Origin: Ferruginibacter sp.
GTDB lineage: Bacteria; Bacteroidota; Bacteroidia; Chitinophagales; Chitinophagaceae
DNA length: 64,000 nucleotides
Assembly (NCBI GenBank): GCA_025352695.1
Contig: JANXSK010000044.1
Coordinates: 1-64,000, forward strand
Reading direction: 5' to 3'
Shown: in pieces, positions 48,115-58,008 of the stretch
How the letters are laid out: every line of letters starts with the position of its first letter
Position numbering within the stretch: the first letter of the stretch is position 1
Position numbers and translations under genes: made by a program
Notes under the pieces: generated by a model
What the model was told of the DNA's origin: nothing
Databases searched by the model: none
Seen by the model: only the letters and a program-made list of their open reading frames with translations

Positions 48115-49233
48115 ATGGGAACACTGCGAATAAACTTGCTACATTACAAATTAGTAATACTCTTGTTTTTTTATACTCCTGCATACACACAAATAACCCT
48201 TATTGGCAAAGTAGTTGATGCAATTACGGACATACCGGTAACCAATGCAAGCATTTATTTTAACAATACAACAATTGCTACCAAAACAAACCTACAGGGT
48301 GAATTTAATTTTACTGCCCTCAATTTTATTACTTCAGCGTTGCTGATATCGAGTAGCAGATACGAGTTACTGGTGTTTAAACCAACTGCAGTACAACTGA
48401 AAGGAACAAGGAAATTTGTATTTAAACTACAGGCAAAAGAACCTCCACCTCAAGATAAGATACCTCCGACTGTTCCCTTGAGAAAAAGATGGCTTGAGAT
48501 TTTTTACAGCACCGTTTTGGGGATATCTGCAGAAGCTGCTAAAAGCACTATATTGAACGATACCAGTATTTATTTTTTATCTGCATCGGGTAGCAACATT
48601 TTTTTTGCCTATGCTGATGAGCCACTGGTAATTAATAATCCTATGCTGGGATACAAAATTAGTTTCGACCTGGTTGAATTTTGGTATGATGATGCAACCG
48701 GAAAAAGTGATTTTGTTGGCTATTGCAGGTATGAAGAAACGGGTGCTAATAAAAAATATGAAAAGAATCGAAAGCGTTCGTACTATGGAAGCTCTTTGCA
48801 CTTTTACCGCAGCCTAGTTACCCACCAATTGCAGCAACAAGGGTTTGGTACTTTTTTGGTAAAAACGGATAGTGTAAAAGGAAGAGATAAAACCACTACA
48901 ACTTTGCAGGAAGATGACCTGGATGCTTTTGTTCCGGTAACTGCGCAGCAACTGTTATACATAGATAGCAGTAACAATTTTTCTATTCGGCTTGCCAGTC
49001 GTTTATTAGTGCAATACTACCAAAATCCTTATGGCAAGGCGTATCTTTCTCAAAATATTTATGTACAGGGAGTACTTCCTACGGGTGTTGAAAGTTACCT
49101 CTCACTTAACACATCGTCAGTCGCCATTAACAATGCAGGAGCCTTAAGTGATGCAGCTGCCATAAGCTATACCGGTTATTGGAACTATGAAAGAATAGCG
49201 AATATATTGCCCTATGATTACCAGCCGGAATAA
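48115..49233 (+). CDS. exported carboxypeptidase-D-regulatory-like protein (paralogue A)
   Basis: The 372-residue protein has a signal peptide (to TPAYTQ) and a CarboxypepD_reg-like beta-sandwich at about 27-110 (GKVVDAITDIPVTNASIYFN, TNLQGEFNFTAL). The rest is shared with the gene at 49442: ILNDTSIYFLSASGSNIFFA, LGYKISFDLVEFWYDD, YYGSSLHFYRSLVTHQLQQQ and GYWNYERIANILPYDYQPE. The N-terminal domain is the same type that starts SusC-like receptors, but no barrel follows. The role is unknown; the acyltransferase ends 3 bp upstream. Confidence 0.85.
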   Translation: MGTLRINLLHYKLVILLFFYTPAYTQITLIGKVVDAITDIPVTNASIYFNNTTIATKTNLQGEFNFTALNFITSALLISSSRYELLVFKPTAVQLKGTRKFVFKLQAKEPPPQDKIPPTVPLRKRWLEIFYSTVLGISAEAAKSTILNDTSIYFLSASGSNIFFAYADEPLVINNPMLGYKISFDLVEFWYDDATGKSDFVGYCRYEETGANKKYEKNRKRSYYGSSLHFYRSLVTHQLQQQGFGTFLVKTDSVKGRDKTTTTLQEDDLDAFVPVTAQQLLYIDSSNNFSIRLASRLLVQYYQNPYGKAYLSQNIYVQGVLPTGVESYLSLNTSSVAINNAGALSDAAAISYTGYWNYERIANILPYDYQPE

Positions 49234-49441: not shown

Positions 49442-50587
49442 ATGATATTTTTAATGATAAAAAGAAACCTATTTTTTTTGGTTGTACTTTTTCTTTTACC
49501 CTTTAATTTGATAGCACAAAAAACAATTAGGGGTACTGTGCTAAGCGAAGCTACGGGCTTACCGCTTGAAGGTGCTAGCGTATATTTTAATAACACTTCG
49601 ATTGGTACAAGTGCGAATGCATCAGGCCAATTTTTCATTACCTTACCAGAAATAGCAAATGCAGAACTCATTATTTCAGCAGTAGGTTTTCAGCTAATAG
49701 TTTTTAAACCGGATGCTGCAGTTATTAAAAATAACAACATAGTATTTAAACTTTCACCAAAAGAGCAGCAGTTGAAAGAAGTATTGATATTGACTGATGC
49801 CGTAAGAAAAAAATACCTGGCTATTTTTGAAAAAAATTTTTTAGGTATAACCGAGGAAGCTTCCAGAAGTAGTATAAAAAATAAAAAAGATATTTACTTT
49901 ACTTCCAGCGGTGCAAAGAATTCTTTTATGGCTTACAGCGATACTCCTTTGGTGATCATCAATAAAATGCTTGGGTACAAAATTAGTTTTGAGCTGGGGG
50001 AATTTTTTTACGATGAACAAAGCGGCCGTACCTTTTATTATGGCTACACCCGCTTTGAAGAAATGGGCATCAAAAATAGGTGGGTTAAAAACCGTAAGAA
50101 TTGTTATTATGGCGGTACAGTGCATTTTTACCAGTCGCTTATAAACAACGATCTTAAAAAACAAGGATACCAGATTTACCTGATAAAACCGGTACATTTT
50201 TCAAATGACAACAGTACAAATAGCAGTAATAAAAGATCAATCCGCCAACCAGATCAACAGGAAGAGATGGCGATGGCAATAAGCGTAACTGCAGGGCAAA
50301 TTATTACCGCAGATAGCGTTAACAGCATTAATTATGTTGTTACCATTCCAGGTAAATTAATGGTGCAGTATGAAAAAGATCCTTCGTCTAAAAAATATTT
50401 GTTGAAAAATACTTTTATTCAGGGCAATTTGCCTTCAGGCTTTCGGTCGTATGTAACTGTTAAAGCGCCCTTTTTAAGTCTTAATAATGCAGGCATCATC
50501 AACAATCCGATGAAAGTAGAATACAGTGGTTATTGGATATACGAAAAGGCAGCCAATATGCTGCCTTTTAATTATGTACCAGAGTAA
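49442..50587 (+). CDS. exported carboxypeptidase-D-regulatory-like protein (paralogue B)
   Basis: The 381-residue protein is a paralogue of the preceding gene: signal peptide (to NLIAQ), GTVLSEATGLPLEGASVYFN, LGYKISFELGEFFYDEQSG, YYGGTVHFYQSLINNDLKKQ and the same C-terminal GYWIYEKAANMLPFNYVPE. An internal ATG at 49454 is an alternative start. Tandem duplication followed by divergence explains the pair. The gene is convergent with the thioesterase, with only 2 bp between the stops. Confidence 0.85.
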   Translation: MIFLMIKRNLFFLVVLFLLPFNLIAQKTIRGTVLSEATGLPLEGASVYFNNTSIGTSANASGQFFITLPEIANAELIISAVGFQLIVFKPDAAVIKNNNIVFKLSPKEQQLKEVLILTDAVRKKYLAIFEKNFLGITEEASRSSIKNKKDIYFTSSGAKNSFMAYSDTPLVIINKMLGYKISFELGEFFYDEQSGRTFYYGYTRFEEMGIKNRWVKNRKNCYYGGTVHFYQSLINNDLKKQGYQIYLIKPVHFSNDNSTNSSNKRSIRQPDQQEEMAMAISVTAGQIITADSVNSINYVVTIPGKLMVQYEKDPSSKKYLLKNTFIQGNLPSGFRSYVTVKAPFLSLNNAGIINNPMKVEYSGYWIYEKAANMLPFNYVPE

Positions 50588-50589
50588 TT

Positions 50590-51099
50590 TTATTTTGTAA
50601 ATAAAGCTCTTAATTCTCCTGCATCTTCTGCTTTCATTTTTCCGCCCAAAACCAATCTTAATTGTCTTCTTCTTAAGGCACCTTCATACAAGTTTTTCTC
50701 CTCTTCAGTTTCAGCAATTAAAGGGCTTGCTGGTTTTGGCTTGCTGTTAGGATCAAGTGCTACAAACGTAAAATAGGCTTCGTTGCTTTTGTATTTATGT
50801 TGGTGTATGGCATCTTCTCCCCAAACTTTTATATGTACTTCCATGCTGCTGTTAAACACCCTGCTAACCTTTGCTTCAATGTGTACTACATTACCCAGTT
50901 TAATGGGGTTTTCAAAAGATATATTATCTACAGAAGCTGTTACTACAGGTGATCCGCAATGTTTCATCGCCGATAAGGCAGAGGCTATATCCATCCAATA
51001 CATCAGGCGGCCACCCATCAGGTTTCCAAATGTATTGGTATCGTTTGGCAGTACCAGTTCTGTCATTATTACCAACGATTCATTTGCTTTCTTATCCAT
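50590..51099 (-). CDS. acyl-CoA thioesterase, hotdog fold (YciA-like)
   Basis: From ATG 51099 (MDKKANESLVIM) the protein has about 169 residues and a hotdog fold: LVLPNDTNTFGNLMGGRLMY (catalytic Asp/Asn region), WMDIASALSAMKHCGSPVVT, ASVDNISFENPIKLGNVVHI and VWGEDAIHQHKYKSNEAYFT. It hydrolyses acyl-CoA thioesters in the cytosol. A longer in-frame start at 51129 adds 10 residues not typical of the family. Confidence 0.9.
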   Translation of the reverse strand: MDKKANESLVIMTELVLPNDTNTFGNLMGGRLMYWMDIASALSAMKHCGSPVVTASVDNISFENPIKLGNVVHIEAKVSRVFNSSMEVHIKVWGEDAIHQHKYKSNEAYFTFVALDPNSKPKPASPLIAETEEEKNLYEGALRRRQLRLVLGGKMKAEDAGELRALFTK

Positions 51100-51344
51100 G
51101 TATTCAATTTTCGCAAAGATAAGGGGCAATGGTTGATGTGTGATTTTATGCTGGTTGATTTTTCACTCTGAAATTTTTGGGTATTTTATTAATCATCAGT
51201 ATGCCATCCTTTAGCCTAATTACGTTGGTTGGGCGAATCATTAAATTGCTACCATTGAGCTTTAGCACGTGATTTACAAGAACGTATTTGACAGTATGCA
51301 AACTGATAGAAAAAAAGCCAGTTTATAACAAGTTCTGTTATACC

Positions 51345-52442
51345 TTAATTTAAATATTTGACGCAATTTTTCCAATAAGCAGAAAAGGAAGAAAAATAAC
51401 CTGTTACCTCAGGAAAAAGTTCATCGTATTTTTCTGCAATTCCCTCGTAATGCATGGTGGTAGGGTGGGCTTTATAAATGAGTTGCCTGCTACCTGAAAT
51501 TTTTTTTAATTCGTTAAAATTATTTGCAAAAATTTGTATGCCTTCTATATTTTTAGATAGGTTGCTGATGAACTGCATTACTGTATCACTCACCGGATAT
51601 TTTTTAAAATGAGCAGGTTCAAGCAATAGTATTTTATTGGCAGTTTCACCTGCATGCCATGTTGGATCTATGTTGTAGGAGTTATAAATAAGAACTGGCA
51701 GCTCATCTTTTAATACAAGCGCTTCTGTAGCAGGTAGATTTGTTTTTGCAAAAAAATTACTTTTTTCTTTCAACACTTCAGGTAGCTGCATCGTAGTAAT
51801 AGCTTCATACGAATTGTTTAAAAAACTATCTTTCTGGTTGCTATTGGTATATCTGTTAATGTTTTCCTGATTACAATAATATTTTTTTGAACTAAAAGTA
51901 CCGGCAATCCATTGCCAGCTTAAGCTGTTGCTGGCTAGGTCGCCATCTAGTAAATGGTAATACATCCATTGCGCAGGTTGTAACCAATGTGCGTTGGCAA
52001 TGTTACAGGTAATGCTGCTTATATACATGCGAGCATGATTGTGCATATAACCAGTAGCATATAGCAACTCAATTTGTTCGTCTATGGCTTCAATGCCGGT
52101 AGTTGCATTTTCAATCGCAGCTACCATTTTTCTGTGTATTACTTTAGGCTGCTCCTGTTTAATATCGGTAAAAATATTATCGCCGATAGATTGCCAAGTC
52201 CTTTGCCAGTAGGCTCTCCAGGCAAGTTCCTGAATAAATTTTTCTATTTGGTAAGGCTTATATGTTTTTAGTACCTGCTGCAATATTTGTTGTAAACTAA
52301 TTACACCTCTTGAAATATAAGGCGACAAATAAGTTACATCGCCACCAATAAAATTTCTTGTTCGGGCATATTTTACAGGGTCAATATTATCCAGTCTTTT
52401 AAGTATGCTTTTGTAGTTTGTTGGAAAGTTAGGTGCAGACAT
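51345..52442 (-). CDS. photolyase/cryptochrome-like protein with FAD domain first and a C-terminal alpha/beta domain
   Basis: The 365-residue protein begins directly with the FAD-binding domain of photolyases: GGDVTYLSPYISRGVISLQQ, QELAWRAYWQRTWQ, YATGYMHNHARMYIS and SLSWQWIAGTFSSKKYYCNQ (classical FAD pocket). The usual N-terminal antenna Rossmann domain is missing. Instead an alpha/beta-like domain follows at about 225-365 (LPVLIYNSYNIDP, ANKILLLEPAHFKKYP, IQIFANNFNELKKISGSRQL). The domain order is thus opposite to standard photolyases. It is the last gene of the minus-strand photolyase cluster. The function, DNA repair or light sensing, is open. Confidence 0.83.
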   Translation of the reverse strand: MSAPNFPTNYKSILKRLDNIDPVKYARTRNFIGGDVTYLSPYISRGVISLQQILQQVLKTYKPYQIEKFIQELAWRAYWQRTWQSIGDNIFTDIKQEQPKVIHRKMVAAIENATTGIEAIDEQIELLYATGYMHNHARMYISSITCNIANAHWLQPAQWMYYHLLDGDLASNSLSWQWIAGTFSSKKYYCNQENINRYTNSNQKDSFLNNSYEAITTMQLPEVLKEKSNFFAKTNLPATEALVLKDELPVLIYNSYNIDPTWHAGETANKILLLEPAHFKKYPVSDTVMQFISNLSKNIEGIQIFANNFNELKKISGSRQLIYKAHPTTMHYEGIAEKYDELFPEVTGYFSSFSAYWKNCVKYLN

Positions 52443-52494
52443 TTTTTTATTTTTAATATTCCATTGATGGGACTGGTAATTAAATATCTCGTTA

Positions 52495-52776
52495 TTACCT
52501 TTTACTTATTTTATTATGTGTTATAGTGCGCTGGCTTTTACATTTAAACCGGTTTATTGCATCATCCCTTAAAGCAGCATGTTTAGTATTCCTTCCGTTG
52601 GTGCGTTTTCGCCACATTTTAAAGCTGGAGGTTTTCATTTCTTTACGCATCAACTCAATCACTTCTTTTTCTTTTAAACCAAACTGTATTTCTATGGCTT
52701 CAAATGTGGTTCGGTCTTCCAATGCCATTTCAATGATGCGGTCTATATCTTTATCAGTAAATACTATTTTCTCCAT
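52495..52776 (-). CDS. TIGR03643/DUF2805 family small protein
   Basis: This 93-residue basic protein shows the family pattern KDIDRIIEMALEDRTTFEAI, FGLKEKEVIELMRKEMKTSS, FKMWRKRTNGRNTKHAALR. The first half has helix-turn-helix-like features (LEDRTTFEAIEIQFGLKEKEV), suggesting nucleic-acid binding. The family is usually found next to photolyase genes. It lies 1 bp after the flavin reductase and 52 bp before the photolyase-like gene, in one operon. Confidence 0.88.
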   Translation of the reverse strand: MEKIVFTDKDIDRIIEMALEDRTTFEAIEIQFGLKEKEVIELMRKEMKTSSFKMWRKRTNGRNTKHAALRDDAINRFKCKSQRTITHNKISKR

Positions 52777-52777
52777 T

Positions 52778-53329
52778 TTATATTCTGATTAATTTATGTG
52801 CTCTTAAAATATCTAATGTTAGTGCTTCGCCCTCATTCAAATTTTTGTATGCAGTTACATCACATACAAATCCCTGGTGATCGCCACCTTCAAATGTGCT
52901 GATTACTTTTAACTGCATTACTGCCAGGCAGTTTTTTAAAATAGGGTAACCATTCCATTCTGCCAGTTCAGATCTCTTTGTTAACCGGCTTATTTTATCA
53001 ATTTGTTTACCACTTTGTTTACCCAGTAAATCTACCAGCCGGTATTGGGCAGCAGCTAATAACTGCAAAATAAATTCTCCTTGCTTTGTTACATTTTCAA
53101 GGGTCTGGGTTCCTTTGAAAATGCCACATACAAAACGTTTGGGTTGCATACTTATTTGAGAAGCATAGGTTATAATATGCATGTTTTTATTGCCATCAGT
53201 TTTGCTGCTGATGCTGTATACGGGAAGATTTACACGATTCCATGGGCGCTTACTGCTTTTGATAGAAGACTTTATAAATTCTTTTGAAGGAGACTTTAAA
53301 AGAATAGTTGAGTTGTTAATTTCTTTCAC
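52778..53329 (-). CDS. flavin reductase-like FMN-binding protein
   Basis: The 183-residue protein has the flavin-reductase split-barrel fold: PVYSISSKTDGNKNMHIITY, ASQISMQPKRFVCGIFKGTQ, TLENVTKQGEFILQLLAAAQ and GYPILKNCLAVMQLKVIS. It would bind FMN and may supply reduced flavin to partner enzymes such as the two photolyase-like proteins. Its start overlaps the end of the upstream photolyase gene by 14 bp; the next gene starts 1 bp after its stop. This tight packing supports a common function. Confidence 0.88.
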   Translation of the reverse strand: MKEINNSTILLKSPSKEFIKSSIKSSKRPWNRVNLPVYSISSKTDGNKNMHIITYASQISMQPKRFVCGIFKGTQTLENVTKQGEFILQLLAAAQYRLVDLLGKQSGKQIDKISRLTKRSELAEWNGYPILKNCLAVMQLKVISTFEGGDHQGFVCDVTAYKNLNEGEALTLDILRAHKLIRI

Positions 53330-54821
53330 GATCGCTGAGGTTTTCTTTGTCTAATTTTTGCAGATATTTTTCTGCTATATCAATGTGCTTTTTTCTTTTT
53401 TCTTCAGGCATTTTATCAAAGGTTTTTATTAACATGCCAAGCCTCGGGTTTTTTAAAAAAAAGTCTCTGTGCATGTGCATAAAACGCCAAAATAAGCCGT
53501 CCCATATTTCAGTCCATTCTCCTTTGGGATAATCACTCATTTTTAATAAATAATTACTACCGCTGATGTACGGCTTGGTGGTCATTAGTCCTCCATCGGC
53601 AAACTGCGTCATCCCATAAACGTTAGGTACCATAACCCAATCGTATGCATCAACATACATTTCCATAAACCAGCGGTACACTTCATCGGGATCAAATTCG
53701 CAGAGTAACATAAAATTACCCATTACCATTAGCCTTTCAATATGATGGCTATAGCCGTTCTGTAACGTTTTTTTTATAACGTTGTCTACAGGTACAATCC
53801 CAGTTTTGCCTGTCCAAAAACTGCCAGTTATTTTTCTTGTAAAGCCCCAATAATTTTTTGTACGTTGTTTACTGCCTTCTCTTTCGTACACAATTTTTAT
53901 AAACTCCCGCCAACCCAATATTTGGCGAATGAATCCTTCGAGAGAATTTAAAGGCACGTTGTACTTTGCTGCACCCACCATGGCTTTATCTATAATTTGT
54001 TGAGGCGATAATAAACCAATGTTTAACATCGGGCTTAATACCGAGTGGTATAAAAAATGTTCTTTGGCAACGATTGCATCTTCGTATATGCCAAATGCTG
54101 AAAAACGTTGTTGTAAAAATTCATCCAGCCATTTTTCGGCACCTGCAAAATCAATAGGGTAAATAAATGTTTTGCCATCACCATAATTTGTTTCAAAATT
54201 TGTGGCCACATATACTTTTGCTTCTTTAACATAAGTAGTTTCTTTAGCAAACGTTACCAATGGGGCTACTGCTGTTTTTGGAAACCGCTGCCGGTTGTCT
54301 GCATCAAAAGTCCATTGCCCACCTTCGGGTTGTCCGCCTGCATCCAGTAAAATATTTCGTTGCTTTCGTTGGGCTGTATAAAAACCCGTTTGAAAATAGC
54401 TTTTCTTTTTATCGAAATACGAGCTTACTTCATCCTGCGTATTTAAAAAATTGGGTGAAGCATATTCTATAATATTAATGGCATATTTTTTACAACTTTC
54501 CTTTATTTTTTTATGCAACCAGTTATCTGCTACAGCTGCAATATGGATGGAAGTAATTTTTTGTTTACTCAGGTGTGTTAACAGATTTTGTATATCCGAA
54601 TAGGGGGAATCCGCTTCAATATATTCAACAACTATTTTCTTTTTTAGGAGGTAATCTTCGTAGGCTTTCATGCTGGCCCTGTGAAGGATTAATTTTTGCT
54701 TGTGAAAATTGTATTGGTTAAAGAAAAGTGTTTCTTCAATAAGATAAACAGTACGTGCGGTTGTAACCGCAGGATGTTGTTTAAAAAGCTGGTGTGGAAA
54801 TATAATAACAATCTCATGCAT
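53316..54821 (-). CDS. (6-4)-photolyase/FeS-BCP-related cryptochrome, lacking the Fe-S cysteines
   Basis: The 501-residue protein matches the photolyase-related branch that includes bacterial (6-4) photolyases (PhrB/CryB). Features are VIIFPHQLFKQHPAV at the N-terminus, LNSLEGFIRQILGWREFIKI (FAD region), GYSHHIERLMVMGNFMLLCE, VPNVYGMTQFADGGLMTTKP. Fe-S members have DYCKGC...ACPF in the following segment, but here it reads SDYPKGEWTEIWDGLFWRF, so these cluster ligands are absent. The enzyme probably works without a [4Fe-4S] cluster. It is the second gene of the cluster and overlaps the flavin reductase gene. Confidence 0.88.
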   Translation of the reverse strand: MHEIVIIFPHQLFKQHPAVTTARTVYLIEETLFFNQYNFHKQKLILHRASMKAYEDYLLKKKIVVEYIEADSPYSDIQNLLTHLSKQKITSIHIAAVADNWLHKKIKESCKKYAINIIEYASPNFLNTQDEVSSYFDKKKSYFQTGFYTAQRKQRNILLDAGGQPEGGQWTFDADNRQRFPKTAVAPLVTFAKETTYVKEAKVYVATNFETNYGDGKTFIYPIDFAGAEKWLDEFLQQRFSAFGIYEDAIVAKEHFLYHSVLSPMLNIGLLSPQQIIDKAMVGAAKYNVPLNSLEGFIRQILGWREFIKIVYEREGSKQRTKNYWGFTRKITGSFWTGKTGIVPVDNVIKKTLQNGYSHHIERLMVMGNFMLLCEFDPDEVYRWFMEMYVDAYDWVMVPNVYGMTQFADGGLMTTKPYISGSNYLLKMSDYPKGEWTEIWDGLFWRFMHMHRDFFLKNPRLGMLIKTFDKMPEEKRKKHIDIAEKYLQKLDKENLSDRERN

Positions 54822-54926
54822 AAAATAAATTGAGCCCTAGGAGGTTGAATACATTTAAATAGTTAAGAGCGCATTATCTGCATTAATTTAAAACAACAAA
54901 TAAAGTATTTGATTTGTTAAAAACAT

Positions 54927-55718
54927 TTATGTCGTCATCAATTGTTTTTTATTTACAATAGCTTCATATACGCCATCCCAAAGTTCAATACGTTTCTTTA
55001 GAGAATTAATGGTTGCCTTTTCTGCTGCAATCCAAAATAATTCATTGTTGCCACAAAGCTTAGCAGTCATTTGTAATGCAAGGTGGCTATGGTGCCCACC
55101 ATCTACTTCAATGTGCCTTTCCAGGTAGTATTTAAAAATAGAAATATCATCAGGAAAATTTTTATCCAAGTCATTGATAATAGAAATGAACATATTAGGA
55201 ATCAGATCTTCTCTGCCAAAAGTAAAAATGGCAGCTTGTAAATATGCTTTATCACTATTAATTATTTCGAAAGTACAATCAACAAAATTAGCAGCAGCAG
55301 CAGGTGTATCGGATACCAAAAATGCCTCTTTAAAATTGTTCGTTTTCAATAAAGTAGAAATAAATTGATGTATTTGTTCTGTGTTAGCACCACATTGATC
55401 CATCGCATCTAAATAAATTTCAAAATGGCTTGTACGATTGCCAAAATTATCAACATCGGATTCTTCGCCCACTACAATTTCATTAATAAGGAACCTAGTA
55501 TCAGCATATCCTTTTGGAAACCAGGGAACAGATGTACAAGTTAAATTTTGTTGTAATGTTTTTAATAACGACATAAAATCCCAAACTGCATACACATGGT
55601 ATTGCATAAATAATTTAAGGTCTTCAATATCTTTTATAACACCATACACTTTATGATTGATTATTTGTTGTCTTAACGGTTCAATATTTTTTTGTATTTT
55701 ATCTATGTGCTGATTCAT
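54927..55718 (-). CDS. DUF3050 protein, heme-oxygenase-like fold, candidate diiron enzyme
   Basis: This 263-residue all-helical protein belongs to DUF3050: VYGVIKDIEDLKLFMQYHVY, AVWDFMSLLKTLQQ, VGEESDVDNFGNRTSHFEIY and YYLERHIEVDGGHHSHLALQ. The last motif has the spacing H-x3-D-x2-H, seen in heme-oxygenase-like diiron oxygenases such as CADD, and EE...SHFE can supply the other ligands. This reading is inference; no function is established for the family to my knowledge. It is the first gene of the minus-strand photolyase cluster, divergent from the SDR gene. Confidence 0.85.
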   Translation of the reverse strand: MNQHIDKIQKNIEPLRQQIINHKVYGVIKDIEDLKLFMQYHVYAVWDFMSLLKTLQQNLTCTSVPWFPKGYADTRFLINEIVVGEESDVDNFGNRTSHFEIYLDAMDQCGANTEQIHQFISTLLKTNNFKEAFLVSDTPAAAANFVDCTFEIINSDKAYLQAAIFTFGREDLIPNMFISIINDLDKNFPDDISIFKYYLERHIEVDGGHHSHLALQMTAKLCGNNELFWIAAEKATINSLKKRIELWDGVYEAIVNKKQLMTT

Positions 55719-55898
55719 CTTTACTTTATATTATTCGGTAAATTTTTTTAAGTGTTTTTAAATAATATCCTATTAATTTGAAAGACGGGACAACGAACAA
55801 AAATACCTGAATAATTACGGTTGCCTGACTTGCATCCTGATCTGCCGACGTTCCAAACAATACGACAAGCATTTTGTTTAATACATAAATAGTTTATT
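55719..55898. promoter_or_regulatory. shared promoter region of DUF3050/photolyase cluster and SDR
   Basis: The 180-bp gap between divergent starts must hold both promoters. A TAnnTTTG-like box (tatttttg) occurs on the minus strand near 55795-55805, reading towards DUF3050, and an imperfect repeat aaacaa/ttgttt lies at about 55856-55880. No known operator was identified. Confidence 0.4.
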
Positions 55899-56615
55899 AT
55901 GGAAATATTAAATGGAAAAAATATATTGATAATTGGTGCTACAGGTGGTATAGGATCAAGGGCTGTCAAATTACTGGCAGGTAGTGGCGCAAAGTTATTT
56001 CTGGCAGGCAGAAATTCAGATAAATTGCAACAGGTAGCAAAAGAAAACAATGTACCTGCGGAAAGAATATTTGTGTTGGATATTTCTCAACCTGATGCAG
56101 TAACTGAACTAAAAGAAAAATATTTTCAGCAGTTTCCTTCGATAGACATTCTTGTAAATGCAGCAGGCATCGGCATTATAAAAACGATGGATACGTTAAC
56201 CGAAGTTGATTTTTTTAAAACACTTAACTATAATTTGTATGCTCCCTTTTTATTGATAAAAGCTTTTTTACCTGCGATGAAGGAAGTTAAAAAGGGCCTT
56301 ATCATCAATATTCCGGGCGTATTGGGAAAAGTGCCTATGGCCGGCGCAGCTGCCTACTGTGCCAGTAAATATGGATTGGTGGGCATGCTGCAAAGTATTA
56401 GGGAAGAATTAAAGAGAACGGATATTCGCATTACAAATTTATTTTTAGGTGGCGTAGATTCACCTTTTTGGGATACCATCGAATTAAAAGTACAAAGAGA
56501 AAAAATGGTGCAGGCTGAAGAAGCTGCCAAAGCGATCTGGTTTTTATGCCAGCAGCCGAGCAGTGGAGTGGTAAGCGAAATGGTGTTGCAACCTTTTAAT
56601 CACCAAGCCATATAA
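55899..56615 (+). CDS. short-chain dehydrogenase/reductase, catalytic Ser absent
   Basis: The 238-residue protein has the SDR cofactor motif GATGGIGS (residues 13-20), NAAG at 87-90 and YCASK with Tyr153 and Lys157. The usual catalytic Ser about 13 residues before Tyr is replaced: the strand reads LIINIPGVLGK. Activity may therefore be altered or use another residue. It is divergent from the photolyase operon and probably regulated with it. Confidence 0.88.
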   Translation: MEILNGKNILIIGATGGIGSRAVKLLAGSGAKLFLAGRNSDKLQQVAKENNVPAERIFVLDISQPDAVTELKEKYFQQFPSIDILVNAAGIGIIKTMDTLTEVDFFKTLNYNLYAPFLLIKAFLPAMKEVKKGLIINIPGVLGKVPMAGAAAYCASKYGLVGMLQSIREELKRTDIRITNLFLGGVDSPFWDTIELKVQREKMVQAEEAAKAIWFLCQQPSSGVVSEMVLQPFNHQAI

Positions 56616-56775
56616 AAATTATTTAAATGATTTAGTAAGAAATTATTGTCATTTAATACTTGTTTTAATTTATAAATTGCAAAATTTACTTGTTAGTAAA
56701 AAGGTAAATGTTGCTATAGTTGTTAAGGATACAGCGAAATTGGATTCATTATATTTGTGCATATTTTTATTTTTT

Positions 56776-58008
56776 ATGAATTTCGATCAATCTATTTCAT
56801 TCGACAATACGGAGACTGCTTTTGCTTACAAAAAGGAAAATGAATTAAAAACAGCTCATTTTTTATTTGGTGCCATGGGCAAACCATGGCTGGTTAACCT
56901 GGGTTTAAAACTTACTCCTCTGGCAATAAAATGGCAAGTACCTTTTATAACTTCTATAATAAAGAAAACTATTTTTCAACAATTTGTTGGAGGAGAAACG
57001 CTGGAAGAAACGGCTACTGTTGCCAAAAAATTAGGTGTTTATAATGTAGATGTAATTCTTGATTATGGGGTAGAAGGTGGTGATGATGGCGAAAATGGTT
57101 TTGATCATTCTACTGAAGAATTTATAAGGGTAATTAATTATGCAGCCACGCAACCCAATATTCCGTTTATGAGTGTTAAGGTTACGGGGTTTGCACGTTT
57201 TGCTTTGTTAGAAAAAATTGATGCGCTGATGACCAATGCAACTGGTACATTGATGAGACGTTATTTGTCAGTTATAGAAAATTTGCCGGAAGCCGAAAAG
57301 GAAGAATGGCACAGGGTAAGGGTACGGATATTGCGTATTTGTGAAGCAGCAGCAGCAAAAAAAATTGGGGTGCTGGTAGATGCAGAAGAAACCTGGATAC
57401 AAGATCCTGTTGATGCCCTCACCATTTTAATGATGGATACTTTTAACAAACAACGTGTGGTGGTGTTCAATACTATACAACTTTACCGTCACGACCGCTT
57501 TAAATTTTTACAAGATTCTTACGCGGCTGCAGCAGAGCGCAATTTTGTGCTGGGTGCAAAGCTGGTTAGAGGTGCTTATATGGAAAAAGAACGATTGCGT
57601 GCAATAGCAATGAACTATTCATCTCCGATACAAACAGATAAAGAAAATACAGACAGGGATTACAATGCTGCTGTAAAATTTTGTATTGATCATTTAGATA
57701 TTATAGCCTTCATCATTGCATCGCACAATGAACAATCCAATTTAACTGCTACTGAATTATTACAACAAAAAAATATTCCACTCAATCATCCGCATGTACA
57801 TTTTTCGCAGTTATATGGCATGAGCGACAACATTACTTTTAACCTCGCCAAAGCCGCTTGTTCTGTAAGCAAATATTTGCCATTTGGCCCCATTAAAGAT
57901 GTAATTCCATACCTGATGAGAAGGGCCGAGGAAAACTCTTCTGTAAGCGGACAAACAGGCCGGGAATTAAGGCTGATAAAGAAGGAACTCGATAGAAGAA
58001 AGCAGTAG
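56776..58008 (+). CDS. proline dehydrogenase
   Basis: From ATG 56776 the protein has 410 residues. It shows the PRODH TIM-barrel motifs: NVDVILDYGVEGGDDGENGF, VLVDAEETWIQDPVDALTIL, FNTIQLYRHDRFKFLQDSYA, FVLGAKLVRGAYMEKERLRA, FIIASHNEQSNLTA and YLPFGPIKDVIPYLMRRAEE with the substrate-binding RRxxE. It oxidises proline to pyrroline-5-carboxylate with FAD. The upstream in-frame start at 56677 adds a hydrophobic stretch not seen in the family. Confidence 0.93.
   Translation: MNFDQSISFDNTETAFAYKKENELKTAHFLFGAMGKPWLVNLGLKLTPLAIKWQVPFITSIIKKTIFQQFVGGETLEETATVAKKLGVYNVDVILDYGVEGGDDGENGFDHSTEEFIRVINYAATQPNIPFMSVKVTGFARFALLEKIDALMTNATGTLMRRYLSVIENLPEAEKEEWHRVRVRILRICEAAAAKKIGVLVDAEETWIQDPVDALTILMMDTFNKQRVVVFNTIQLYRHDRFKFLQDSYAAAAERNFVLGAKLVRGAYMEKERLRAIAMNYSSPIQTDKENTDRDYNAAVKFCIDHLDIIAFIIASHNEQSNLTATELLQQKNIPLNHPHVHFSQLYGMSDNITFNLAKAACSVSKYLPFGPIKDVIPYLMRRAEENSSVSGQTGRELRLIKKELDRRKQ

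What the first reader, a model, noticed from the sequence alone, without database searches (positions are those of the whole stretch)
51345..55898. Compact photolyase cluster with two atypical photolyases, flavin reductase, TIGR03643 protein and a candidate diiron DUF3050 enzyme
Five minus-strand genes are tightly packed: DUF3050, (6-4)-type photolyase, flavin reductase (14-bp overlap), TIGR03643 (1-bp gap) and a FAD-first photolyase-like protein, with a divergent SDR across a 180-bp shared promoter. Seen: packing, FAD motifs and, in DUF3050, the H-x3-D-x2-H motif used by heme-oxygenase-like diiron oxygenases. Inference: a light-linked repair or photoprotection module in which the flavin reductase feeds reduced flavin and DUF3050 performs an oxidation. 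DUF3050 has no assigned reaction that I know of.
Basis: partly seen in the sequence, partly recalled or inferred. Interest (0 to 1): 0.7.

Follow-up and report, generated by a model that had tools for sequence, protein, structure and literature searches.

The report
Operon of two iron-sulfur-free photolyases
This stretch holds a cluster of genes for light-driven repair of UV-damaged DNA, in which one repair enzyme has its two halves in swapped order and both repair enzymes lack the iron-sulfur cluster that many of their relatives carry; the neighbouring DUF3050 gene is probably only a local addition.

Summary
The five minus-strand genes, the overlaps and the divergent SDR are real. The cluster reads best as a light-driven UV-repair operon whose parts (FAD-first photolyase, TIGR03643/DUF2805, flavin reductase, DPRP-type (6-4) photolyase, SDR, proline dehydrogenase) recur together, in varying order, in other genera. 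DUF3050 is not part of that core: it sits beside the module in 2 of the 52 family genomes that carry it, and no neighbour family is shared by more than 3 of 30 DUF3050 loci. Its diiron assignment dates from 2015, and a DUF3050 structure is in the PDB.

Two things stand out. (1) The FAD-first protein is a photolyase in inverted domain order: residues 1-226 are the FAD domain, residues 236-365 match the alpha/beta domain that normally comes first. In distant relatives that domain is a separate gene just downstream (57 of 83 loci) or fused behind the FAD domain (11 of 83). (2) Both photolyases here lack the Fe-S cysteines.

Inverted-order and Fe-S-free photolyases are already in print, so this is a new variant of a known kind. 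The spread of the split arrangement conflicts with the description of 'short photolyase-like' proteins as lacking that domain.

The parts
51345..52442 (-). FADf: inverted-order photolyase; aa 1-226 FAD-binding/catalytic domain, aa 236-365 alpha/beta domain of the kind found at the N-terminus of ordinary photolyases; no Fe-S cysteine set
51345..51737 (-). C-terminal alpha/beta domain of FADf as modelled alone (130 aa)
52495..52776 (-). TIGR03643 / DUF2805 protein, conserved upstream partner of FADf; function unknown
   Evidence: 119.2 bits, cut-off 66.55; 123.4 bits, cut-off 22.5; beside FADf in 8 of 17 full-length FADf genomes of the phylum sample
52778..53329 (-). flavin reductase-like protein
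   Evidence: PF01613 78.9 bits, cut-off 27; no NCBIfam equivalog reaches its cut-off
53316..54821 (-). BCP: Fe-S-free prokaryotic (6-4)-type photolyase
   Evidence: PF04244 186.2 bits; 7ykn/8a1h E 2e-84; Fe-S loop deleted
54927..55718 (-). DUF3050, haem-oxygenase-like diiron-type protein; judged a local neighbour, not core
   Evidence: PF11251 322.5 bits; 9vwb E 8.8e-50; linkage
55899..56615 (+). divergent SDR oxidoreductase, recurrent neighbour
   Evidence: PF00106 150.4 bits; within 5 kb of 11 of 32 Fe-S-free BCP genes
56677..58008 (+). proline dehydrogenase, recurrent neighbour
   Evidence: PF01619 241.7 bits; within 5 kb of 9 of 32 Fe-S-free BCP genes
50590..51129 (-). thioesterase (4HBT), recurrent neighbour
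   Evidence: PF03061 65.1 bits; within 5 kb of 9 of 32 Fe-S-free BCP genes

Best explanation
A UV-damage photoreactivation operon built round two photolyases that should act on different lesions. BCP is an Fe-S-free prokaryotic (6-4) photolyase. FADf is an inverted-order photolyase, most likely for CPD lesions: the catalytic FAD/DNA domain comes first and the alpha/beta domain, normally first, comes last. Shown here: gene content and order, recurrence in other genera, domain order of FADf, and absence of the Fe-S ligands in both proteins. Inferred: light drives electron transfer from reduced FAD to the lesion; the flavin reductase, where present, keeps flavin reduced; TIGR03643 is an accessory partner of FADf; SDR, proline dehydrogenase and thioesterase are co-regulated neighbours. 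Also inferred: FADf descends from a two-gene (split) photolyase, FAD protein and alpha/beta protein encoded side by side, by fusion in that gene order and loss of the Fe-S cluster. DUF3050 is a separate diiron-type protein that lies beside the module in two genera.
Confidence: 0.72

Rival explanations
1. First reader's module: DUF3050 is a functional member that performs an oxidation in a light-linked repair or photoprotection pathway, with the flavin reductase as electron source.
For: Adjacency here; a second genus (G058) has DUF2805-FADf-DUF3050-SDR in a row, and the two copies are not sisters, so the linkage may have arisen twice. DUF3050 and DUF2805 share 22 of 147 genomes (p 6e-4). All six metal-ligand candidates are conserved.
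Against: 50 of 52 family genomes with DUF3050 do not have it beside the module; in the phylum lists (46 genomes with DUF3050) only the own genome has it near DUF2805, read off; no conserved neighbour.
Confidence: 0.12
2. The C-terminal domain of FADf is a generic Rossmann/universal-stress-type domain unrelated to the photolyase alpha/beta domain, so there is no inverted photolyase.
Against: Photolyase rows cover 115-120 residues including the last strand and helix, universal stress proteins 82-97. The partner-domain profile bridges both sides, hits 22 of 25 class I photolyases always from residue 7, and a Deinococcus relative shows PF03441 then PF00875 (E 1e-4 for the isolated C-term, below the curated cut-off). 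Inverted order is published for relatives (PMC9426592).
Confidence: 0.1
3. A photosensory rather than a repair unit: FADf or BCP acts as a cryptochrome and signals through the small basic protein TIGR03643 to control transcription of SDR and the other neighbours.
For: TIGR03643 directly precedes FADf in several families and is basic at its C-terminus; divergent layout.
Against: Catalytic positions of photolyases are kept in both proteins; no solved relative and no DNA-binding fold was found for TIGR03643 (one chance-level hit).
Confidence: 0.1

Closest known systems
Inverted-order photolyase Phr4/Phr5/Phr6 of Synechococcus and Cyanobium (PMC9426592, abstract, section 5 and passages seen; two-gene form noted earlier in PMC3441193, passage seen)
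   Same: FAD domain first, alpha/beta domain second, as two neighbouring genes or one fused gene
   Different: FADf has no Fe-S cysteine set, lies in a different phylum, is tied to TIGR03643 and paired with a (6-4)-type photolyase
Phr7 / NewPHL: N-terminal FAD domain plus C-terminal Z-domain, ssDNA CPD photolyase (described in PMC9426592; Emmerich 2020 itself not held, recalled only)
   Same: FAD domain first, no Fe-S cysteines
   Different: FADf does not group with the four alphaproteobacterial FAD-first proteins in the tree; a link between their C-terminal domains was inconclusive
Short photolyase-like proteins, SPL (PMC9178010 section 13; PMC9649867 and PMC9498864 passages; Xu 2021 not held)
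   Same: catalytic domain without an N-terminal alpha/beta domain; many FAD-first relatives found here have Fe-S cysteines
   Different: SPLs are described as lacking the alpha/beta domain; here it follows in the same protein, and in 57 of 83 relatives as the next gene. That these relatives are the published SPLs was not checked by accession
Fe-S-free prokaryotic (6-4) photolyases, subgroup M / PromaPL / most Phr2 (PMC9178010 section 13; PMC9426592 section 5; PMC12082625 passage)
   Same: BCP: PF04244 domain, (6-4) motifs, no Fe-S cysteines
   Different: operon context; placement in subgroup M by tree not tested
Haem-oxygenase-like dimetal oxidases, HDO (PMC13108848 section 4; DUF3050 assignment PMC4520260 passages; MgoB PMC3298696 passages; PDB 9vwb)
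   Same: DUF3050 keeps E, H, E, H-x3-D-x3-H ligand candidates
   Different: no reaction for a DUF3050 protein seen in the papers looked at; MboA of the mangotoxin work is another HDO

Membership tests
Inverted-order (FAD-first) photolyases | FAD-binding/catalytic domain at the N-terminus | tested here: met
   PF03441 aa 69-203; model aa 1-226 on the whole photolyase FAD domain
Inverted-order (FAD-first) photolyases | photolyase alpha/beta domain at the C-terminus | tested here: met
   [not shown]
Inverted-order (FAD-first) photolyases | four Fe-S cysteines, as in Phr4/Phr6 (absent in Phr7) | tested here: not met
   0-2 Cys in the loop in 19 of 19 FADf against 3-4 in 58 of 83 relatives; so not a Phr4/6-type Fe-S member
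NewPHL / Phr7 | groups with the alphaproteobacterial FAD-first proteins; C-terminal Z-domain | tested here: inconclusive
   tree separates them with weak deep nodes; C-domain comparison failed on a poor set
NewPHL / Phr7 | repair of CPD in single-stranded DNA | not testable with these tools
   needs enzyme assay
Prokaryotic (6-4) photolyases | PF04244 DPRP domain and nearest solved relatives | tested here: met
   186.2 bits; 8 of 8 PDB sequences at E up to 0.001 are of this group or bear the cryptochrome/photolyase name
Prokaryotic (6-4) photolyases | PhrB His366, Tyr424, Tyr430 motifs | tested here: met
   motifs SHHIERLM and TKPYISGSNY in the alignment to 7ykn against PhrB motifs read from PMC4619345 primers
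FeS-BCP subtype of these | four Fe-S cysteines | tested here: not met
   loop deleted here; 32 of 36 fetched family loci lack it, 4 keep it (alignment)
Subgroup M of prokaryotic (6-4) photolyases | clusters with PromaPL in a tree | not tested
   PromaPL sequence not fetched
Haem-oxygenase-like dimetal oxidases (DUF3050) | 3 His / 3 carboxylate ligands | tested here: met
   sequence level only: E85/E86, H98, E170, H202, D206, H210 invariant in 31 of 31
Haem-oxygenase-like dimetal oxidases (DUF3050) | ligands converge on a metal site in seven-helix fold | not tested
TIGR03643 | score above the curated cut-off | tested here: met
   119.2 against 66.55 bits

The most novel reading that the evidence does not exclude
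The FAD-only 'short photolyase-like' proteins are not domain-less relics near the root of the photolyase family but the catalytic halves of split, probably heterodimeric photolyases whose alpha/beta half is the next gene. Fusion in that gene order, in more than one lineage, gave inverted photolyases, and the branch seen here then lost the Fe-S cluster and became tied to TIGR03643 in an operon with an Fe-S-free (6-4) photolyase. If so, the argument that SPLs are ancestral because they lack a domain loses its basis.
Probability: 0.5. Interest if true: 0.65.

Novelty: new variant of a known kind. Interest (0 to 1): 0.45.

Why it matters
It turns a 'FAD-first photolyase-like' curiosity into a defined inverted-order photolyase and links it, through split two-gene relatives in many phyla, to the ordinary photolyase fold. 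A debated point, whether short photolyase-like proteins are ancestors of the photolyase/cryptochrome family because they lack the alpha/beta domain, becomes directly testable by co-expressing the neighbouring gene. The operon also offers two photolyases from largely Fe-S-bearing lineages that both do without the cluster, a natural comparison for the unknown role of that cluster. The DUF3050 part of the original claim turns out to be mostly local.

Tried and rejected
DUF3050 as a core member: tested by neighbourhood and co-occurrence and set aside. HHalign of FADf's C-terminus straight against class I N-domains, class I FAD domains and BCP N-domains failed, and Foldseek on that domain alone gave a best E of 0.2 with no photolyase among the 50 listed rows; the case rests on VIA and the intermediate profile. 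An attempt to tie the C-termini of alphaproteobacterial FAD-first proteins to the photolyase alpha/beta domain was inconclusive; the set of 10 was poor, with one fragmentary reading (L309) and one ordinary-order photolyase (L311) left in. My first extraction of the relatives' ORFs used a motif filter that kept 24 of 80 and was dropped for the HMM approach. The DUF2805 profile found no solved relative, so a helix-turn-helix role is not claimed. Promoter and terminator scans gave nothing above shuffles.

Biases. The partner profile was seeded from one of these loci (L221, itself one of the 11 fused) and iterated on the same set. Of 85 loci examined, 2 truncated ones were dropped; of 15 without a detected partner, 6 have long C-termini that the profile does not recognise and 9 look FAD-only within the flank held. 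Twelve of 954 decoy ORFs hit the profile at E below 1e-3; several are the same ORFs as the named positives or were called photolyases, the others were not examined one by one. PF00875 hits to the separate ORFs are all under the curated cut-off (9 of 10 scanned have one). Fisher tests ignore phylogeny. Gap lengths were typed over.

Not in print: that a fused Fe-S-free inverted photolyase in this phylum and the wide spread of the split form are new rests on paper searches in a library that lacks the two key papers (Emmerich 2020, Xu 2021).

Full report
Observation. The window carries the five minus-strand genes as described, with the stated 14-bp overlap, 1-bp gap and 180-bp divergent gap. From the distal end: FADf (51345-52442), TIGR03643/DUF2805 (52495-52776), flavin reductase (52778-53329), BCP (53316-54821), DUF3050 (54927-55718), and divergently SDR (55899-56615) with proline dehydrogenase (56677-58008). 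A thioesterase gene (50590-51129) lies beyond FADf.

What recurs elsewhere. In 147 genomes of the same taxonomic family, the own genome included, PF04244 is in 37, DUF2805 in 37 and DUF3050 in 52. DUF2805 and BCP share 27 genomes (Fisher p 2e-13, uncorrected for phylogeny) and lie within 3 kb of each other in 11 of those; DUF3050 and BCP share 17 (p 0.16) and are within 3 kb only here; DUF3050 and DUF2805 share 22 (p 6e-4) and are within 3 kb in 2. I fetched 36 BCP loci of up to 20 kb, the window itself not among them. Of these, 32 lack the Fe-S loop cysteines and 4 keep them. Within 5 kb of the 32 lie FADf in 14, SDR in 11, DUF2805 in 10, and proline dehydrogenase, flavin reductase and thioesterase in 9 each; 14 of all 36 have none of these within 5 kb, some on short contigs. 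Order and strand vary between genera, which speaks for functional association rather than inheritance of one block. In a phylum sample of 296 genomes full-length FADf is in 17, with DUF2805 directly beside it in 8. DUF2805 itself has a photolyase in its held flank (about 1.5 kb a side, less at contig ends) in 18 of 30 family loci and 9 of 29 phylum loci, so it is not tied to photolyases everywhere. On an Acinetobacter plasmid TIGR03643 sits close to a cryptochrome/photolyase gene.

DUF3050. It is a clear PF11251 member with all six ligand candidates of haem-oxygenase-like dimetal oxidases invariant in 31 of 31 aligned sequences, in register with the solved 9vwb. The assignment was made in 2015 (PMC4520260, passages seen), and MgoB of the mangotoxin mgo operon is a DUF3050 protein (PMC3298696, passages seen). 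I saw no assigned reaction. Apart from this window only G058 has DUF3050 in the module, as DUF2805-FADf-DUF3050-SDR; the two copies are not sisters in a DUF3050 tree (support 64 for the clade of 8 that holds both). In G143 DUF3050 lies 5 kb from DUF2805 with other genes between. No neighbour family is shared by more than 3 of 30 DUF3050 loci. In the phylum lists (46 genomes with DUF3050, 84 with DUF2805) only the own genome has the two close together, as read off. I take DUF3050 as a local addition, with a 0.12 chance that it is a working part.

BCP. The nearest solved relatives are prokaryotic (6-4) photolyases (7ykn/8a1h, E 2e-84). The loop with three Fe-S cysteines is deleted and the position of the fourth cysteine holds another residue. 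Motifs known from A. fabrum PhrB (His366, Tyr424, Tyr430; PMC4619345, passages seen) are present. The same paper reports that 7% of 464 relatives lack the Fe-S cysteines. Fe-S-free prokaryotic (6-4) photolyases are known as subgroup M with PromaPL (PMC9178010, section 13) and as most Phr2 (PMC9426592, section 5).

Profiles gave independent support. A Deinococcus relative has PF03441 first and PF00875 second (E 1e-4 for its isolated C-term, below the curated cut-off). A scan of named genomes returned 80 FAD-first loci (best of 587). With 5 more from plasmids and 2 truncated ones dropped, 57 of 83 have the alpha/beta domain as a same-strand ORF just downstream (median distance 12 nt, 46 of 57 at most 40 nt), 11 have it fused behind the FAD domain and 15 show none. 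Titles name Cyanobacteria, Chloroflexi, Acidobacteria, Proteobacteria, Verrucomicrobia and others. Nine of 10 separate ORFs scanned have PF00875 as best hit, all below the cut-off. The profile of these domains hits 22 of 25 class I photolyases, always from residue 7, and 4 of 4 DASH-like proteins, but 0 of 36 BCP and only 1 of 21 FADf at E below 1e-3. Profile-profile comparison gives prob 98.0 to the class I N-domain, 0.1 to the class I FAD domain, 73 to the BCP N-domain and 96.2 (E 2.3e-9) to FADf's C-terminus. I conclude that FADf is a photolyase with its two domains in swapped order. How the C-domain docks on the FAD domain was not measured.

Phylogeny. In a FAD-domain tree of 64 sequences FADf is monophyletic (100/100) and sister to two FAD-first proteins from Rubrivivax and Limnobacter (99.4/92); class I and DASH form one clade (99.7/100); the four alphaproteobacterial FAD-first proteins stand apart; deep nodes are weak. 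The Fe-S loop has 3-4 cysteines in 58 of 83 FAD-first relatives and 0-2 in 19 of 19 FADf. A fusion of split genes followed by loss of the cluster fits these facts, but the direction is inference.

Relation to print. The two-gene arrangement was noted in 2012 for Synechococcus WH7803 (PMC3441193, passage seen). PMC9426592 (2022; abstract, section 5 and passages seen) describes the inverted order as phr4/phr5 or fused phr6 with Fe-S cysteines, reports that each photolyase gene disrupted contributes to UV survival, and describes Phr7 as FAD domain plus C-terminal Z-domain. [quoted passage not shown] Emmerich 2020 and Xu 2021 are not held; what I recall of them is not used as evidence. New here, as far as searches show: a fused, Fe-S-free inverted photolyase family in this phylum, its link with TIGR03643, the operon that pairs it with an Fe-S-free (6-4)-type photolyase, and the spread of the split arrangement over many phyla. 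The choice of loci favours those with a partner, so the proportions are upper estimates.

Mechanism. Most likely both proteins bind FAD, BCP repairs (6-4) photoproducts and FADf repairs CPDs by light-driven electron transfer from reduced FAD. The flavin reductase could keep flavin reduced in the dark, but most related modules lack it nearby. TIGR03643 is small and basic; its role is unknown. None of the functional steps was tested.

Noticed in passing
L225-L304, e.g. L225:3001-4179 and L229:3001-4161: FAD-only photolyase genes in many phyla are followed by a separate short gene for a photolyase alpha/beta domain (57 of 83 loci).
   Followed up: yes
L313:6718-9871 (G058): DUF2805, FADf, DUF3050 and SDR in a row on one strand: the second genus with DUF3050 in the module.
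   Followed up: partly
L158:6989-8928: TIGR03643 next to DUF2256 and a cryptochrome/photolyase gene on an Acinetobacter plasmid.
   Followed up: no
G000:C113:1083-2201 (own genome): The genome also has an ordinary-order photolyase (PF00875 first) on another contig.
   Followed up: no
window 48115-49233 and 49442-50587: Two neighbouring ORFs of 372 and 381 aa with visibly similar protein sequences, probable paralogues, next to the module.
   Followed up: no
L222, L224, L310: Alphaproteobacterial FAD-first proteins sit beside DUF3429 genes (three of the loci read).
   Followed up: no
[not shown]
   Followed up: no
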